Shown one piece after another: positions 29,375 through 36,487 of a stretch of 36,487 nucleotides of DNA (within the stretch, counting starts at the first letter, position 1; each line of letters opens with the position of its first letter). Location of the stretch: positions 164,723 through 201,209 of the forward strand of contig NZ_JAHMIN010000009.1 in NCBI RefSeq assembly GCF_018986435.1, given 5' to 3'. The notes beneath the pieces are model-generated. The model worked only from the letters and a program-made list of their open reading frames with translations, ran no database searches and had not been told where the DNA came from. Source of the DNA: Hahella sp. HN01. Lineage in GTDB: Bacteria; Pseudomonadota; Gammaproteobacteria; Pseudomonadales; Oleiphilaceae. The translations under genes were made by a program, and so were the position numbers.

Positions 29375-31840
29375 ATGGATAAACACCAGCTCAGCGAACG
29401 CGATATTTGCACAAAATTCATCACACCAGCCATTTTGCAAGCCGGTTGGCAGCAGAATCAGTTTCGTGAGGAAGTAAACCTGACGGACGGTCGCGTCATG
29501 GTGCGCGGCAAGATGGCGGCGCGAGTGAAAAATCCTGAAGCCAAAGGCGGTCCCAAGCGTGCTGATTACGTGCTTTACGCCATGCCTAATGTGCCGATTG
29601 CAATTATCGAAGCCAAGCAAGCCAAGTTTTCCGTGGGTCATGGTATGCAACAGGCATTAACCTATGCCGAGATGCTCGACGCGCCTTTTGCCATCAGCTG
29701 CAATGGCGAAGGCTTCTTATTGCATGATCGTACAGGCCTTACCCAGCCCGTTGAGCGCGAAGTTGATTTAACCGAGTTTCCATCGCTTGCGGATCTTTGG
29801 CGGCTATACCAGCAGTGGAAGGGGCTAACCGAACCTGAGGCGGTGAAATTGATTGAGCAGCCGTTTCACACTGATGGCAGCGGCAAAGAGCCTCGTTATT
29901 ATCAGCGGGTTGCCATTAACCGCAGCATTGAAACTATTGCCAAGGGCCAACAGCGCATATTGCTCGTCATGGCGACTGGCACCGGCAAAACTTACACGGC
30001 CTTTCAAATTATCTGGCGCTTATGGAAGGCTAAAGCCAAAAAGCGCATTCTGTTTCTGGCTGATCGCAACATTCTGGTCGATCAAACCATGCAGCAAGAT
30101 TTCGCCCCTTTCGGCGAGGTCATGCACAAGGTCACCAACCGCGAAGTCAAAAAGAACTACGAAATATATCTGGCACTATATCAGGCCGTTACTGGTCGCG
30201 AAGAGTGGAAGCAAATCTACCGTCAGTTTCCTTCCGACTTTTTTGATCTGGTTGTCATCGACGAATGTCACCGTGGCAGTGCCGCCGATGATTCTGCCTG
30301 GCGTGATGTATTGGAGTATTTCAACAGTGCCACCCACTTGGGCCTCACGGCCACACCCAAAGAAAAATCTCGACTCGACAAGAACAAAGAAGTTCGCGTA
30401 ATCGACAATCCGGAATACAACTACAAGTACTTTGGCGAACCCATTTACACCTATTCGCTCAAGCAGGGCATTGAAGATGGTTTTCTTGCTCCCTACAAAG
30501 TGATTCGCATCGCCACCGATGTCGACGCCGTGGGCTACACGCCGGAAAAAGGCAAGGTCGATAAGCTGGGCCAATTAGTGGAGCAGCGCCAATACAACAC
30601 CAAAGATTTTGATCGCAACTTGGTACTGGAAAAGCGCACCGAACTAGTGGCCAGTAAAGTCTGGGAATATTTAAAAGCTACCGACCCCATGGCCAAAACC
30701 ATCGTCTTTTGTGACGATCAAGACCATGCCGAACGCATGCGACAAGCACTGGTCAAACTGATTCCAGCCGCCGCCAGCAACCGCCGCTATGTCATGCGCA
30801 TTACCGGCGACGATAACGAAGGCAAAGCGCAGCTCTCGTATTTTATTGATAACGACGAGCCATACCCGGTCATTGCCACCACCTCCAAATTGCTCACGAC
30901 CGGGGTGGATGCCAAAACCTGCAAGCTCATCGTGCTCGACCAGAACATCAACTCCATGACCGAGTTTAAGCAAATCATTGGTCGAGGCACCCGCCTGCGC
31001 GAGGATTATCAAAAGCTCTACTTCACCATCATGGATTTTAAGGGCGCCACCCGCCTGTTTGCCGACCCGGACTTCGATGGCGAACCGGTGGTGATTTACG
31101 AACCCAAGCCCGATGAACCCGTAGTGCCGCCTGAAGATATGCCGCCCGATACCACTCCCGGCATTGGTGAAATAGACCCGCCCCCATACGATCCCTGCAC
31201 AACTGGCGATTTTGACGATGGCAGCGATACGAGAGGTGGAGGCCAAGGCCGTACCAAATACGTTATCGATAATGTGAACGTGCGCGTGGCGGTTAGCCGC
31301 GAACAATACCTGGATGCCGACGGCAAGCTGATCACCGAAGACTACCGCGTACTGTTAAAAGCCGATATTAAAAAAGCTCTACAGGCCGAATTTGGCAGCC
31401 TTACCGATTTCTTGCGCCGTTGGAATGAAGCCGATCGCAAACAGGCTGTATTGGAAGAACTGGCCGACCACGGCGTGCTACTCGATATTCTGCAACAGGC
31501 TGTACCCAACGGTGGAGAGCTGGACGCTTTCGATTTGGTTGCCCATGTTGCCTTTAACCAAAGGCCACTGACCCGCCGAGAGCGCGCCAACAAAGTCAAA
31601 AAGCGCGATGTCTTTGGCAAATACGGCGAGCAAGCCCGCGCCGTGCTCGAAGCCCTATTGGAAAAATTCGCCGACCACGGCGTGCAAGACATTGAAGATG
31701 CCAAAGTGCTTGAGCTGCCGCCGTTTGATCAGTTCGGCAGTAAAACCCAAATTCGCCGAGGCATTTTTGGCGGTGTTGATCAATACACCCAGGCCATCCA
31801 TGAATTAGAACAAGCGCTTTATGACGATCAAAGCGCCTAA
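29375..31840 (+). CDS. hsdR: Type I restriction endonuclease R subunit (EcoEI/EcoAI-like)
   Basis: An 821-residue HsdR, the size of type IB (EcoAI/EcoEI) motor subunits. The N-terminal PD-(D/E)XK nuclease motif is visible as RADYVLY (D64) and IAIIEAK (E79, K81). The translocase follows with Walker A MATGTGKT (199-206), DECH (296-299), GLTATP (323-328) and motif VI QIIGRGTRLRED. The C-terminal part, with RERANKVKKRDVFGKYG, is the EcoEI-type domain that contacts the methyltransferase. The enzyme cuts unmodified DNA after ATP-driven translocation. It is followed by hsdM after 24 bases. Composition differs from the core genes to the left, consistent with island DNA. Confidence 0.95.
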   Translation: MDKHQLSERDICTKFITPAILQAGWQQNQFREEVNLTDGRVMVRGKMAARVKNPEAKGGPKRADYVLYAMPNVPIAIIEAKQAKFSVGHGMQQALTYAEMLDAPFAISCNGEGFLLHDRTGLTQPVEREVDLTEFPSLADLWRLYQQWKGLTEPEAVKLIEQPFHTDGSGKEPRYYQRVAINRSIETIAKGQQRILLVMATGTGKTYTAFQIIWRLWKAKAKKRILFLADRNILVDQTMQQDFAPFGEVMHKVTNREVKKNYEIYLALYQAVTGREEWKQIYRQFPSDFFDLVVIDECHRGSAADDSAWRDVLEYFNSATHLGLTATPKEKSRLDKNKEVRVIDNPEYNYKYFGEPIYTYSLKQGIEDGFLAPYKVIRIATDVDAVGYTPEKGKVDKLGQLVEQRQYNTKDFDRNLVLEKRTELVASKVWEYLKATDPMAKTIVFCDDQDHAERMRQALVKLIPAAASNRRYVMRITGDDNEGKAQLSYFIDNDEPYPVIATTSKLLTTGVDAKTCKLIVLDQNINSMTEFKQIIGRGTRLREDYQKLYFTIMDFKGATRLFADPDFDGEPVVIYEPKPDEPVVPPEDMPPDTTPGIGEIDPPPYDPCTTGDFDDGSDTRGGGQGRTKYVIDNVNVRVAVSREQYLDADGKLITEDYRVLLKADIKKALQAEFGSLTDFLRRWNEADRKQAVLEELADHGVLLDILQQAVPNGGELDAFDLVAHVAFNQRPLTRRERANKVKKRDVFGKYGEQARAVLEALLEKFADHGVQDIEDAKVLELPPFDQFGSKTQIRRGIFGGVDQYTQAIHELEQALYDDQSA

Positions 31841-31864: not shown

Positions 31865-33646
31865 ATGAACCTCAGCAGCACCATTAAATCCATTCAGGAC
31901 ATCATGCGCAAAGACGACGGCGTCGATGGTGACGCCCAGCGCCTAGGCCAGCTCACCTGGATGTTATTTTTAAAAGTGCTCGACCAGCGCGAAGAAGAAT
32001 GGGAAGACGATAACCCTAAATACACATCTCCACTGCCCAAAGACTTTCGCTGGCGCAACTGGGCCGCTTATGTGCCGGGTGCCAATGGCAAGAAAGCCCC
32101 ACAAAAAGCCGCCAGCGACATCATTGGCTTTGTAAACAACCAGTTATTCCCTGCCTTAAAAGAACTGGATGCTAATGCCAGCGCCCAACACAAAGTCATT
32201 CGCAGCGTGTTTGAAGATGCCAACAACTACATGAAATCCGGCACTCAATTACTGGCTGTAATTGAAAAGCTCGAAGAAGCCATTAACTTTCACGACTTTA
32301 AAACCCGTGCCCAAATTGGCGATGTCTACGAGCAACTACTCAACGACCTGCGCGGCGCCGGTAATGCCGGTGAGTTTTACACCCCACGCGCCATCACCGC
32401 CTTTATGGCCGACCGCGTTAACCCACGCCTGGATAAACGCGAAACAGTCATGGACCCAGCCTGCGGTACCGGCGGCTTCTTAACCGCTGCTATTGACCAC
32501 CTTCGTAACCAGCGAACCACTAAATCTGGTGCTGACGACCAGAAAGCAATTGAAGCAATGATTCGCGGCATCGAGAAAAAACAACTACCGCACCTGCTCT
32601 GCACCACCAATATGCTGCTTCACGGCATTGATGTCCCAAGCCAAATTGAACACAAAAACACATTAGGCAAGGGGTGGAATGAGTGGAGCAACAACGACAA
32701 AGTGGAATGCATTATCACTAATCCACCCTTTGGTGGTTATGAAGATGATACGGTGGGCGGCGACTACCCAGCCGACCTAAAAACCCGCGAAACCGCCGAC
32801 ATGTTTATGGCGCTGATCATCAAAAAACTGTTGAAAGAAAACGGCCGAGCCGCCGTGGTTCTGCCCGATGGCTTCTTATTCGGCGATGGCATTAAAGGCA
32901 CGCTAAAAAAACTGCTGCTGCAAGAGTGCAAGCTGCACACCATTATTCGCCTGCCCAAAGGCGTGTTTGCCCCTTACACCACCATTAAAACCAACCTGCT
33001 GTTTTTTACTAAAGGCGCGCGGGTAGACGATGGTAGCGAACACTTTCACACCGACACCATCTGGTTTTACGAGCACCCCTATCCACCAGGCTATAAAAGC
33101 TACAGCAAAACTAAGCCCATTCGTTTGGAAGAATTTAAACCCGAGCAAGACTGGTGGGGTGATGAAAGTGACGACTTTGCCAGCCGCGAGGAAAACGAAT
33201 TCGCTTGGAAAGTGGATTTCAAAGCCAAACGCGAACAGGCTGAAGCCGCCGCACAGCCACACTGGGCCAATGCTGAAAGCTTAAACAATGAGGCCAGCGC
33301 TCTGGATAACCGCATCCGTTATTTGCGCGATTCCATAAAAGGCGTCAGCGATAAAACTCAGCGCCAAAGCGTGGAAGACGACATCGAAATCTTAAAAGCC
33401 GAAAGCGAAGGCCTTCGCCTGAAAGCCCGTGATGCCCAAGCCGCGGGCGACCGCCTCTATTGGCCGATTTTTAACTTGGATTTAAAAAACCCCAAGGCGC
33501 CGGAAGAAGAAAGTCACGACCCGGACGAGCTGCTGATTAAATACAAAAAATTACTAGGCGAAATTGAAGAAACCGAAAACCAGCTCAAAAGTGAGTTGGC
33601 GGCGGCTTTAGCTCATCACTTTAGTGCGGAGACCGAAGACGCATGA
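31865..33646 (+). CDS. hsdM: Type I restriction-modification DNA methyltransferase M subunit
   Basis: A 593-residue N6-adenine methyltransferase. The HsdM N-terminal helical domain (about 1-140) is followed by GNAGEFYTPR (166-175), the SAM-binding motif DPACGTGGF (197-205) and the catalytic motif NPPFGG (286-291). The last 150 residues form a long charged, probably coiled-coil, extension (LDNRIRYLRDSIKG to IEETENQLKSELAAAL), expected to contact the S subunit. It methylates adenine in the sequence chosen by HsdS. The stop overlaps the start of the next gene by 4 bases (ATGA), so the nuclease gene is translationally coupled. A good AGGAA ribosome site precedes the start. Confidence 0.95.
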   Translation: MNLSSTIKSIQDIMRKDDGVDGDAQRLGQLTWMLFLKVLDQREEEWEDDNPKYTSPLPKDFRWRNWAAYVPGANGKKAPQKAASDIIGFVNNQLFPALKELDANASAQHKVIRSVFEDANNYMKSGTQLLAVIEKLEEAINFHDFKTRAQIGDVYEQLLNDLRGAGNAGEFYTPRAITAFMADRVNPRLDKRETVMDPACGTGGFLTAAIDHLRNQRTTKSGADDQKAIEAMIRGIEKKQLPHLLCTTNMLLHGIDVPSQIEHKNTLGKGWNEWSNNDKVECIITNPPFGGYEDDTVGGDYPADLKTRETADMFMALIIKKLLKENGRAAVVLPDGFLFGDGIKGTLKKLLLQECKLHTIIRLPKGVFAPYTTIKTNLLFFTKGARVDDGSEHFHTDTIWFYEHPYPPGYKSYSKTKPIRLEEFKPEQDWWGDESDDFASREENEFAWKVDFKAKREQAEAAAQPHWANAESLNNEASALDNRIRYLRDSIKGVSDKTQRQSVEDDIEILKAESEGLRLKARDAQAAGDRLYWPIFNLDLKNPKAPEEESHDPDELLIKYKKLLGEIEETENQLKSELAAALAHHFSAETEDA

Positions 33647-34689
33647 TCAAGCAGGTATTACCCGACAATTCGCCGTTGCTGAGTGATATCCGCACGCTGA
33701 TCGAGCAAAGTCGCCAGCAACTCATCAGCACGGCGAACAGCGCCCTCACCAACCTTTATTGGCACATTGGCCAGCGCATTCACAATGAAATACTCAAAGG
33801 CGAGCGCGCTGCCTATGGCGAGCAAATTGTCTCAGCACTGTCGAGACAATTACAAAGCGATTATGGTCGGGGTTTTTCCAGCAAAAACCTGCGCCATATG
33901 CAGCGTTTTGCCGAAGCCTTTCCCGACGCCGAGATTGTCTCGACACTGTCGAGACAATTGTCCTGGAGCCATTTCTTAGAAGTGATCTACCTCGACAACC
34001 CTCTGCAACGGGATTTTTATTGCCAAATGTGCAGCCAGGAACGCTGGAGTGTGCGGCAATTACGCGAGCGTAAAAACTCCCTGTTGTTTGAGCGAACGGC
34101 GCTGTCCAAACAGCCCAAAGCCTTACTGGAACAAGAGCTAGAACAACTGCGTGAAAGCAAACAACTTGCATCTGCATTCGTTTTAAAAGACCCCTACCTG
34201 CTGGATTTTCTCGGCCTGAATGACCGCTATTTAGAAAAAGACCTGGAAGACGCCATTCTGCGCGAGCTGGAGCAATTTTTATTAGAACTGGGGGCAGGCT
34301 TTAGCTTTGTCGCCCGCCAAAAGCGCATCCAACTGGATAATGACGATTTTTATATCGACCTGCTGTTCTACAACCGCCGCCTAAAACGCCTGGTGGCCAT
34401 CGACCTGAAACTGGGCGACTTTAAAGCCGAATACAAAGGCCAGATGGAGCTGTATTTGCGCTGGCTGGCCAAACACGAACAAGAAGAAGGCGAAGCCCCA
34501 CCGCTGGGCATTATTTTATGCAGCGGTAAAAAACAGGAGCAAGTTGAATTGTTGGAACTGGATGCCAGCGGCATTCACGTAGCCGAGTACCTCACCGTGT
34601 TACCACCCAAAGAAGTATTACAAGCCAAACTGCACCAAGCCATAGAACGCTCGCGGGCGCGGTTGGAAAACCGTGGGGAGCAAGACTAA
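33643..34689 (+). CDS. DUF1016 / PD-(D/E)XK nuclease-family protein (YhcG-like)
   Basis: A 348-residue protein with the DUF1016 N-terminal domain (about 10-165; YWHIGQRI, YGRGFSSKNLRHMQRFAEAFPD, LSRQLSWSHF) and a C-terminal PD-(D/E)XK-like nuclease domain (about 205-345). The nuclease domain shows FYIDLLFYNRRLKRLVAIDLKLGDFKAEYKGQMELYL. In the core motif the usual E-x-K reads D-L-K. It sits between hsdM and hsdS, overlapping hsdM by 4 bases and hsdS by 1 base, so it is an integral operon member. Such proteins are common near restriction systems but their function is not established. Two near-identical palindromes lie within its coding sequence. Confidence 0.88.
   Translation: MIKQVLPDNSPLLSDIRTLIEQSRQQLISTANSALTNLYWHIGQRIHNEILKGERAAYGEQIVSALSRQLQSDYGRGFSSKNLRHMQRFAEAFPDAEIVSTLSRQLSWSHFLEVIYLDNPLQRDFYCQMCSQERWSVRQLRERKNSLLFERTALSKQPKALLEQELEQLRESKQLASAFVLKDPYLLDFLGLNDRYLEKDLEDAILRELEQFLLELGAGFSFVARQKRIQLDNDDFYIDLLFYNRRLKRLVAIDLKLGDFKAEYKGQMELYLRWLAKHEQEEGEAPPLGIILCSGKKQEQVELLELDASGIHVAEYLTVLPPKEVLQAKLHQAIERSRARLENRGEQD
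33826..33851. repeat. Palindromic repeat copy 1 in the DUF1016 gene
   Basis: A 26-base segment with outer arms ATTGTCTC and GAGACAAT and centre AGCACTGTC. It matches copy 2, 108 bases downstream, at 24 of 26 positions; only two adjacent bases (AG versus GA) differ. It encodes VSALSRQL. The outer pairing extends one base further with A33825 and T33851. Confidence 0.9.
33934..33959. repeat. Palindromic repeat copy 2 in the DUF1016 gene
   Basis: The first 25 bases form a perfect palindrome: 12-base arms ATTGTCTCGACA and TGTCGAGACAAT around a single central C. It is in the same reading frame as copy 1 (36 codons apart) and encodes VSTLSRQL, including an AGA arginine codon used in both copies. 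Confidence 0.92.
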
Positions 34690-36487
34690 TGGACGCACAA
34701 CAGTTTTTGGCGGAGTTTGGGCATATTGCCAATGCGCTGAACGGGATAGTCAAACTTCGAGAGTTAGTCCTGCAACTAGCGATCTCAGGCCGTTTAGTAG
34801 AGCAAAATAGCAACGACATTTCTTCCGATGAATTAATCAGCGTTAACAAGAGAAATAAGCGAGAGTTAATAGAAAAAAAATTGCTAAAAAGAACGGCGGA
34901 TCCAAGATCTATTCAGAAAAAGGAACAACCTTGGGAGCTTCCTGAAAAATGGACTTGGGTAAGGCTGGGCGCTGTTACAAATTATGGCGATGCACCAAAA
35001 GTTGAATTTAAAGATGTAACGCCAGATACATGGGTATTAGAGCTGGAAGATATTGAAAAAAGCTCGTCAAAACTTTTAAAGAAAGTTTTTGCTCATGAAC
35101 GAAAATTTAAAAGTACGAAGAATGGGTTTCCTATTGGAGCAGTTCTTTACGGAAAACTTCGACCCTATCTCGACAAGGTATTGATCGCTGATACTGAAGG
35201 AGTTTGCTCGACGGAAATCAGCCCAATTTCATTTTATGAAAATATTAATGCGTATTATTTGAGATGGTATTTGAAATCGCCGTTCTTTATCTCTTATGCA
35301 AATGGATCAACCTATGGCATGAACCTTCCGCGTCTTGGTACTGATTCAGCACGTGAGGCTCTATTTCCTTTTCCCCCACTCGAAGAACAATCCCGCATTG
35401 TCGCCAAAGTCGATGAGCTGATGGCCCTATGCGATCAGCTAGAAGCGCAGCAACAAAAACGCCGCACCCTGCAAAACCACCTGCGCCAAGCCACCCTGCA
35501 AGCCGTCGCCGCCAGCCAAAGCCCGCACGAGCTGCAAGAAAGCTGGCAGCGCCTGCAAGCCAACTTCGGCCAACTATTTTCTGCGCCGGAGGATGTCGTT
35601 GCTTTCAAAGGGCTAATTCTCGACTTGGCCGTTTCCGGAAATTTATCCAATATAGAACACCGGCATGACTCAACAGGCGAGCAGCTACTGGAGGCGATTG
35701 CGCAGCGAAGAATTGCTTGGTTACATGAAGCGGAAGATCAGGAGAAAAAAGAAGCGCAGACCATGCTTAAAAAACTGCGCACCCAGCAGGTAAATCTTCC
35801 TGAGATAACTCTACCAGAGCATTGGGCTTGGGCAACCTTTTTGCAGGTTTCACAGGCCGTGGTCGACTGCCACAATAAGACCGCCCCTTATGTTGCAAAC
35901 GGTATTCACTTGGTTCGAACAACCGATATTCGAAACGGGGAGATGAATCTAACGAACACGAAGAAAATTACCGAAGAAACTTTCGACTACTGGGCGAGGA
36001 GAATGCCACCGAAAGCTGGAGACATTTTTTTCACCCGTGAGGCACCAATGGGTGAAGCTGCAATCGTTCCCAAGAACGAAAAAGTATGTCTTGGCCAGCG
36101 CACAATGCTTATCCGCTTGTTTCCAGAGTTTTTTAACAATCGCTTTTTACTTTATGTGATTCGAAGCCCCAGCTTTCAAGCTCGAATGATTGAGGCGGCT
36201 ATCGGAATGACCGTAAAACACCTGCGCGTTGGTGGTGTTGAGGATCTTGTAGTACCAGTTCCTCCTAAGCCTGAGCAGGACGCAATAGTCAGTATCATTG
36301 ATTCACTCTTCAACATGTGTGATTACTTTGAGAAACAGCTATCGAAGAAGCAACGTCTTGCTGAGAACTTGGTAACAAGTTCGGTTTCCACCCTCACCGG
36401 CATCGCTATCGAACAAGAAGAGGAACCTATGAAAGCCCCACAAACTGAACTGGTGGCTCCAGTGCGTTTAGGCACGCCGCCGGATGT
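34689..36487 (+). CDS. hsdS: Type I restriction-modification specificity subunit S (runs off the window)
   Basis: The ATG at 34689 overlaps the nuclease stop by one base, and the frame stays open for 599 codons to the window end. The gene is therefore incomplete here or nearly so. The N-terminal conserved helix (LRELVLQLAISGRLVEQ) is followed by target-recognition domain 1 (about 75-225), which is strikingly AT-rich. The central spacer PPLEEQSRIVAKVDELMALCDQLEAQQQKR and a second copy of the start-type motif (FKGLILDLAVSGNL) come next. Then target domain 2 (about 375-520) and a second spacer PPKPEQDAIVSIIDSLFNMCDYFEKQL. Each domain reads one half of a bipartite DNA site. The last part (EEEPMKAPQTELVAPVRL) is an extra C-terminal tail. 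Confidence 0.93.
   Translation, partial: MDAQQFLAEFGHIANALNGIVKLRELVLQLAISGRLVEQNSNDISSDELISVNKRNKRELIEKKLLKRTADPRSIQKKEQPWELPEKWTWVRLGAVTNYGDAPKVEFKDVTPDTWVLELEDIEKSSSKLLKKVFAHERKFKSTKNGFPIGAVLYGKLRPYLDKVLIADTEGVCSTEISPISFYENINAYYLRWYLKSPFFISYANGSTYGMNLPRLGTDSAREALFPFPPLEEQSRIVAKVDELMALCDQLEAQQQKRRTLQNHLRQATLQAVAASQSPHELQESWQRLQANFGQLFSAPEDVVAFKGLILDLAVSGNLSNIEHRHDSTGEQLLEAIAQRRIAWLHEAEDQEKKEAQTMLKKLRTQQVNLPEITLPEHWAWATFLQVSQAVVDCHNKTAPYVANGIHLVRTTDIRNGEMNLTNTKKITEETFDYWARRMPPKAGDIFFTREAPMGEAAIVPKNEKVCLGQRTMLIRLFPEFFNNRFLLYVIRSPSFQARMIEAAIGMTVKHLRVGGVEDLVVPVPPKPEQDAIVSIIDSLFNMCDYFEKQLSKKQRLAENLVTSSVSTLTGIAIEQEEEPMKAPQTELVAPVRLGTPPD

What the first reader, a model, noticed from the sequence alone, without database searches (positions are those of the whole stretch)
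33825..33959. Two near-identical long palindromes inside the DUF1016 coding sequence
Copies at 33826-33851 and 33934-33959 match at 24 of 26 bases, are exactly 36 codons apart in the same frame, and each is palindromic; copy 2 is perfect over 25 bases. Both encode V-S-x-L-S-R-Q-L, which overlaps family motifs. However, protein constraint does not require identical synonymous codons, such as the shared TCG-AGA, nor palindromic DNA. They could be binding sites for autoregulation, recombination or slippage sites, recognition sites for the nuclease itself, or remnants of a mobile palindrome inserted into coding DNA.
Basis: partly seen in the sequence, partly recalled or inferred. Interest (0 to 1): 0.75.

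Follow-up and report, generated by a model that had tools for sequence, protein, structure and literature searches.

The report
Conserved palindrome inside DUF1016 nuclease genes
Genes for a widespread family of DNA-cutting proteins carry, inside their own coding sequence, a symmetric DNA stretch that appears to be the spot the encoded protein itself recognises, which gives a first testable handle on an uncharacterised family.

Summary
In detail: two palindromes (33826-33851, 33934-33959; 24/26 identical; copy 2 perfect over 25 nt) lie 36 codons apart in a DUF1016/YhcG gene between hsdM and hsdS. It is a family-wide feature. Of 264 DUF1016 ORFs collected without reference to palindromes, 218 have at least 10 of 12 complementary pairs at the copy-2 position; synonymous codons predict 2.5. 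The peptide changes while both arms change together, and G.U pairs are not preferred, so the constraint is on DNA. In the own genome and 10 others searched, close matches lie only in such a gene. The N-terminal domain resembles the ParB/Noc DNA-binding domain. Residues encoded outside the palindrome covary with it in order: 109/137 with pair 3, 112 with pair 4, 85 with pair 6, 81 with pair 7; 85, 109 and 112 align with ParB residues that contact or specify parS. Sister-pair tests reach p=5e-16, and the rule carries over to proteins <35% identical. Best explanation: a parS/operator-like site for the gene's own product, probably for local autoregulation (role inferred). No binding experiment exists, the ParB similarity is weak for the window's own protein, and copies outside the gene do not follow the rule better than chance.

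The parts
33643..34689 (+). DUF1016/YhcG gene, 348 aa
   Evidence: ORF, translation P0001, Pfam DUF1016_N E 1.1e-47 and YhcG_C E 1.7e-48
33825..33851 (.). Palindrome copy 1 (site 1), 10 of 12 pairs, codes part of helix 57-74
   Evidence: site-1 window has >=10/12 pairs in 32 of 264 family ORFs
33934..33958 (.). Palindrome copy 2 (site 2), perfect 25-nt palindrome, codes residues 98-106 (helix 96-103)
   Evidence: 218 of 264 family ORFs have >=10/12 pairs here
33685..34095 (+). DUF1016_N domain, residues 15-151, ParB/Noc-like helical DNA-binding domain (proposed)
33883..33897 (+). Codons 81-85 in the putative recognition helix; residues 81 (pair 7) and 85 (pair 6) covary with the palindrome
33967..33978 (+). 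Codons 109-112; residue 109 (aligned with ParB G201) covaries with pair 3, residue 112 (aligned with ParB R204) with pair 4
34051..34056 (+). Codons 137-138 in WSVRQ; residue 137 covaries with pair 3, residue 138 with pair 2
34180..34632 (+). YhcG_C PD-(D/E)XK nuclease domain, residues 180-330; model closest to EndoMS/NucS
29375..31840 (+). hsdR (context)
   Evidence: Pfam ResIII, EcoEI_R_C, HSDR_N
31865..33646 (+). hsdM, overlaps the DUF1016 start by 4 nt (context)
   Evidence: Pfam N6_Mtase, HsdM_N; ORF
34689..36485 (+). hsdS, starts at the last base of DUF1016 and runs to the window end (context)
   Evidence: Pfam Methylase_S; ORF

Best explanation
The palindrome is the DNA target of the protein encoded by the same gene. 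The DUF1016 N-terminal domain is a ParB/Noc-like helical DNA-binding domain that reads two symmetric half-sites as a dimer; the C-terminal domain is a NucS/EndoMS-like PD-(D/E)XK nuclease. Each lineage has its own half-site (roughly AATT-N6-NCA-S-TGN-N6-AATT) that changes together with the contact residues, so protein and site travel as one gene. Shown by sequence: dyad symmetry kept while the peptide changes, DNA-level pairing, near-uniqueness in the genomes searched, ordered residue-base covariation. Inferred: binding, dimer, and purpose. Most likely purpose: local control, the protein occupying its own gene and limiting its transcription (here also read-through into hsdS), a self-contained operator for a gene that moves between operons, prophages and plasmids.
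For: 218 of 264 ORFs palindromic at one place against 2.45 expected. In 90 cluster representatives pairs 2-9 are 80-98% complementary against 26-63% expected for independent arms. Own genome: 2 places, both here; 10 genomes: 1 place each, all inside a DUF1016_N hit. Domain: HTH_ParB matches 12 of 55 relatives at E<=0.01, best 1.5e-6; eight best Foldseek hits ParB/Noc; hhalign E 0.0055. Covariation: k3-109/137, k4-112, k5/k6-85, k7-81; R81 with G at pair 7 in 33.1 of 33.2 weighted clusters; 116 disjoint sister pairs, k7/81 p=5e-16, k3/109 6e-11, k6/85 3e-10, k4/112 9e-7; open scan of 311 residues ranks these first at pairs 3, 4, 6, 7; prediction with training on proteins <35% identical: 0.64 mean against 0.43 majority, 0.33 nearest relative, 0.35-0.45 for 12 draws of other residues.
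Against: No binding data. The window's own protein has no HTH_ParB hit even at E<=10; Foldseek E about 1; hhalign probability 6.6%. The contact set fixed beforehand from the ParB paper is only modestly enriched (p 0.04); the residues of the rule were picked on the same data that one search then cross-validated. Pair 5 is not significant after correction in the open scan, and residue 84 predicts pairs 8-9 no better than the majority base, yet symmetry is kept there. Copies outside the gene (41 of 76 cells right, majority base 39) and tandem copies (19 of 33, majority 23) do not follow the rule; site-1 copies do (43 of 74, majority 18). 46 of 264 ORFs lack >=10/12 pairs. A looser pattern gave three places in one genome, two of them not examined. 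In E. coli, pairs 7-9 vary between copies of one gene yet stay symmetric. The window's L112 with G at pair 4 is a minority combination.
Confidence: 0.8

Rival explanations
1. Structure-specific target: the palindrome is kept as a cruciform or single-strand DNA hairpin that the nuclease (earlier likened to archaeal Holliday-junction resolvases) recognises by shape, not sequence.
For: Pairing is kept at positions whose base is free, for example pairs 7-9 between copies in E. coli yhcG; pair 1 is the least paired inner position, 173 of 228, as in a three-base loop; the nuclease domain was likened to AHJR/YraN resolvases (PMC1189080, passages).
Against: Bases follow specific residues of the N-terminal domain; pair 1 still covaries.
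Confidence: 0.09
2. Passive upkeep: once formed, the palindrome is kept symmetric by template switching or arm conversion during replication, with no function.
For: Arms can change together while flanks are nearly invariant (E. coli copy after yhcG, 3 of 17 loci); such conversion is discussed for coding palindromes of hairworm mitochondria (PMC6649704, abstract and Discussion).
Against: Fixed position in the family, rarity of such palindromes in flanking DNA (37 in 1.01 Mb against 225 in 0.35 Mb), and covariation with residues elsewhere in the protein.
Confidence: 0.05
3. Mobile or selfish coding palindrome (like Rickettsia palindromic elements or REP) that inserts in frame.
For: Tandem copies and copy-number change in E. 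coli; copies just outside some genes and closer to the internal copy than chance (73 pairs, mean distance 2.58 against 4.12); a strain without yhcG keeps one copy.
Against: No dispersed copies in own genome and 10 others; same position across bacteria and archaea.
Confidence: 0.04
4. mRNA hairpin in the coding sequence that controls translation or decay.
For: Conserved complementarity in a transcribed stretch.
Against: G.U-type cells 31, A.C-type 57, other 155 of 2508; at pair 4 G opposite T 1 against A opposite T 75. Copies also lie outside the gene.
Confidence: 0.02

Closest known systems
ParB/Noc with parS/NBS
   Same: Helical DNA-binding domain with weak but detectable sequence and fold similarity; palindromic site; covarying positions 85, 109, 112 align with N178, G201, R204 that contact or specify parS (PMC7383237, passages). 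A parS inside the B. subtilis parB gene (spo0J) is recalled, not confirmed by a call.
   Different: No ParB CTPase domain in Pfam results; fused to a nuclease; site 25-27 bp, inside the gene's coding sequence in most members; lineage-specific sequences; segregation role not indicated.
Rickettsia palindromic elements and PARCELs
   Same: Palindromic DNA inside protein-coding genes (PMC4316617, passages; PMC2996958, abstract and outline).
   Different: Those are inserted or repeated units found in several or many places; here one gene family, one fixed position, near-unique in the genomes searched.
Coding palindromes of Nematomorpha mitochondria
   Same: Perfect inverted repeats kept within coding sequence (PMC6649704, abstract and Discussion).
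   Different: Long, scattered over genes, gained and lost; no proposed binding protein.
REP sequences with RAYT transposases (recalled, no call)
   Same: A palindrome family tied to one DNA-processing gene.
   Different: REPs are dispersed in many copies between genes; here the site is essentially confined to the gene and its edges.

Membership tests
DUF1016/YhcG | DUF1016_N plus YhcG_C domains over cut-off | tested here: met
   162.1 and 164.9 bits against cut-offs 32.8 and 32.5
ParB/Noc | HTH_ParB domain detectable | tested here: inconclusive
   12 of 55 relatives at E<=0.01, best 1.5e-6, but none for the window protein at E<=10; Foldseek top eight ParB/Noc at E 0.86-1.9
ParB/Noc | N-terminal CTPase (ParB/Srx) domain | tested here: not met
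   only DUF1016_N and YhcG_C found
ParB/Noc | palindromic site read by recognition helix and helices 6 and 8 | tested here: inconclusive
   covariation at aligned positions; no binding test
ParB/Noc | spreading on DNA, ParA partner | not testable with these tools
   -
Dispersed mobile palindromes (REP, RPE) | many copies at other places of the genome | tested here: not met
   2 places in the own genome, both here; 1 place in each of 10 genomes, looser pattern: 6 of 13 genomes match, one with 3 places
Structured RNA element | G.U pairs tolerated more than A.C in the stem | tested here: not met
   31 against 57 of 2508 cells
Holliday-junction or cruciform substrate | recognition by structure | not testable with these tools
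   -

The most novel reading that the evidence does not exclude
DUF1016 proteins are self-addressing nucleases: the one strong site in the genome sits inside the nuclease's own gene, and domain and embedded site evolve as a locked pair across bacteria and archaea. The gene so carries a cis address that could hold the nuclease at home and spare the genome, so that loss of the gene frees it (addiction with a DNA antidote), or could direct cutting and recombination to copies of itself.
Probability: 0.3. Interest if true: 0.95.

Novelty: new variant of a known kind. Interest (0 to 1): 0.85.

Why it matters
DUF1016/YhcG is found in bacteria, archaea, plasmids and viral contigs, at times beside type I restriction genes as here, and its function is unknown. 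The result proposes a DNA-binding fold, a DNA target and a residue-base rule that can be tested in E. coli K-12 with a gel-shift. It is also an unusual case of one DNA stretch being at once coding sequence and the proposed binding site of the protein that it encodes, with many natural variants from which specificity can be read.

Tried and rejected
Chance or peptide constraint: rejected. Whole-gene synonymous shuffles: 26.6 of 340 ORFs against 251 of 340 observed. RNA hairpin: not supported. Dispersed repeat: not supported. Exact 25-mer in viral contigs: 0 matches. Frameshift hotspot at the palindrome: 42 breaks between ORF fragments, 8 with the left part ending at profile position 82-107; suggestive at most, not pursued. 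Similarity of copies within a locus is real but does not separate copying from shared specificity. Flank density of palindromes 0.61/kb upstream, 0.47/kb downstream, 0.25/kb control: a modest excess that includes ordinary inverted repeats. Near-identical copies outside the ORF: 11 against 3.4 in a swapped control, 237 ORFs. PDB by sequence: no relevant match, best E 0.078 and 0.081 to a ribosomal protein. P0001 as single query in viral contigs: no relative. Literature: full-text searches of the PMC library for DUF1016, YhcG with nuclease, coding palindromic elements, yhcG with palindrom, PDDEXK with palindrom, perfect palindromes in coding DNA, Rpn nucleases, ParB/Noc specificity, parS in spo0J, COG4804/PF06250/PF17761 (120) showed no paper on a palindrome in this family in the listings and passages seen; subscription papers are not covered, and Rpn papers were seen as listing only.

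Full report
Observation. The two copies are at 33826-33851 and 33934-33959, 24 of 26 identical and 108 nt apart in one frame. Copy 2 is a perfect 25-nt palindrome; copy 1 has 10 of 12 pairs. They lie in a 348-aa DUF1016/YhcG gene between hsdM and hsdS, after hsdR. In the window's 7.1-Mb genome no further copy was found with up to 3 mismatches.

Collection. Relatives were gathered by protein similarity or family, not by the palindrome: 20 of 145 order-level genomes, 60 of 274 class-level, 59 of 398 phylum-level, the best 80 of 583 relatives in named genomes, itself a capped list, 63 loci in viral contigs, and 80 further places picked from the lists (not all listed places were fetched). Only L001 and L002 came in by pattern; they are the window's own gene. 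From 312 loci, identical proteins counted once, 340 ORFs matched the family profile; 264 of them span both domains.

A family feature. At the copy-2 position 218 of 264 ORFs have at least 10 of 12 pairs, 169 at least 11, 69 all 12; the copy-1 window has 32 of 264 with at least 10; each other 27-residue window has 0-2. Synonymous recoding of the same peptides with each gene's codons would give 2.45, 0.3 and 0.03. In other DNA of the same loci 37 palindromes with at least 11 of 12 pairs occur in 1.01 Mb, against 225 in 0.35 Mb of DUF1016 ORFs; by my count ten of the 37 have the same AATT-type form. Palindromes are present in members from Bacteroidota, Clostridia, Planctomycetes, Chlamydiae, Deinococcales, Treponema and Methanosarcina (names, palindromes). 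The peptide is not kept (IVSTLSRQL, IVQTLSAQL, IRETLSLEL, IVQQAVGQL), while both arms change together.

DNA, not RNA. Across 228 distinct sites, mismatches at pairs 2-12 are 31 G.U-type, 57 A.C-type and 155 other of 2508 cells (summed by hand). In 90 cluster representatives pairs 2-9 are 80-98% complementary against 26-63% expected for independent arms, and 0 of 500 permutations reach the observed mutual information at any of pairs 1-11, where the script stopped.

Uniqueness. In 10 genomes sharing one version of the sequence it occurs at one place each with up to 3 mismatches, always inside a DUF1016_N hit; two of these genomes are under 90% complete. A looser pattern matched 6 of 13 further chosen genomes; one of them, 84% complete, has three places, of which one lies in a recognised DUF1016 ORF and two were not examined.

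The protein. The C-terminal part of the model is closest to EndoMS/NucS. The N-terminal domain (model pLDDT 88) has ParB and Noc as its eight best Foldseek hits, with E 0.86-1.9. Pfam HTH_ParB matches 12 of 55 relatives at E<=0.01, best 1.5e-6, but not the window's protein; four unrelated families match one or two members each at E<=0.01. Profile comparison aligns LSWSH and WSVRQ with the GHARALL and LSVRQ stretches of ParB, E 0.0055, probability 6.6%. ParB binds palindromic parS as a symmetric pair through recognition helix 4 and helices 6 and 8; N178, G201 and R204 are among contact or specificity residues (PMC7383237, passages).

The site follows the protein. With palindrome-coded columns left out (241 proteins, effective number 82), the residues most associated with each base pair are ordered along the half-site: 109 and 137 with pair 3, 112 with pair 4, 85 with pairs 5 and 6, 81 with pair 7. 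R81 goes with G at pair 7 in 33.1 of 33.2 weighted clusters; R85, R112 and R137 go mostly with C, that is G on the other strand. Blocks of nuclease-domain columns used as control never reach the observed set score (0 of 120). The set fixed beforehand from the ParB paper is only modestly enriched (p 0.04); the stronger set was chosen after seeing the scan. Two tests guard against relatedness, both on the same data. Predicting bases with training only on proteins below 35% identity gives 0.71, 0.58, 0.82, 0.63, 0.79 for pairs 3-7, against 0.11, 0.18, 0.65, 0.54, 0.50 for the majority base; residue 84 gives no gain at pairs 8-9. In 116 disjoint sister pairs, when residue 81 is the same the pair-7 base is the same in 55 of 57, and when it differs the base differs in 38 of 50 (p=5e-16); pair 3/109 p=6e-11, pair 6/85 p=3e-10, pair 4/112 p=9e-7. 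An open scan of 311 residues ranks these first at pairs 3, 4, 6 and 7, ranks residue 138 first at pair 2 (9e-7) and residue 20 at pair 8 (3e-8), and finds nothing strong at pairs 1, 5 and 9-12. The window fits in part: K81 with C, S109 and V137 with A are usual; H85 with C is one of two; L112 with G is a minority combination.

E. coli. K-12 yhcG has three copies 39 nt apart, one 27 nt after its stop and one 27 nt after gltD. Of the other alleles read, L318 and L330 have two inside the gene, and L317, L320, L329 and L331 one. Among 17 loci the copy after the stop varies only at the centre (L317, L320, L322), at pair 1 (L323), or by a compensated change at pair 7 with the centre (L321, L326, L330); the flanks vary at one column. 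An ST131 strain without yhcG keeps one palindrome between gltD and nanQ. In E. coli B the match to K-12 yhcG ends at the edge of the third copy. The unit is thus duplicated and lost, and some rearrangement edges fall on it; no mechanism is shown.

Limits. The rule fits site-1 copies (43 of 74 cells right, majority base 18) but not copies outside the gene (41 of 76 against 39) or tandem copies (19 of 33 against 23). Symmetry at pairs 8-9 and the free but symmetric pairs 7-9 of E. coli are not explained by the rule. 46 of 264 ORFs lack a good palindrome at site 2. YhcG has been linked genetically to replication and by network to Hsd, Mcr and integrase proteins (PMC2672614, passages), which does not decide between roles. 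A parS inside spo0J is recalled only.

Verdict. The palindrome is best explained as the cognate site of the encoded ParB-like nuclease, embedded in its own gene: 0.8 for that statement, about 0.4 for autoregulation as the main purpose.

Noticed in passing
L336 2511-2579; L335 3644; L313 7982: An E. coli ST131 strain without yhcG keeps one palindrome between gltD and nanQ; K-12 has one on either side of its gltF-yhcG segment. Looks like a scar or a pre-insertion site.
   Followed up: partly
L319 and L314 3380-3500: In E. coli B and another strain yhcG matches K-12 only up to the end of the third palindrome; unrelated DNA with an ORF annotated transposase follows.
   Followed up: partly
L138 569-1649 and 2928-4017: Two DUF1016 genes of different type lie close together in Sansalvadorimonas, each with its own, different palindrome.
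   Followed up: no
L171 4039; L173 4064; L138 4039 and 4075: Palindromes close to the internal one, or of the same type, lie directly after the DUF1016 stop codon.
   Followed up: partly
L193 3282-3399: Four tandem palindromes 39 nt apart inside one DUF1016 gene, the same unit length as in E. coli yhcG.
   Followed up: no
residue 20 of P0001 (33700-33702): Residue 20 in the first long helix covaries with pair 8 (p 3e-8 in the sister-pair scan), a possible further contact not expected from ParB.
   Followed up: no
window 31865-34689: hsdM, DUF1016 and hsdS overlap by a few bases, so a protein bound at the palindromes would sit in the middle of a restriction operon.
   Followed up: no
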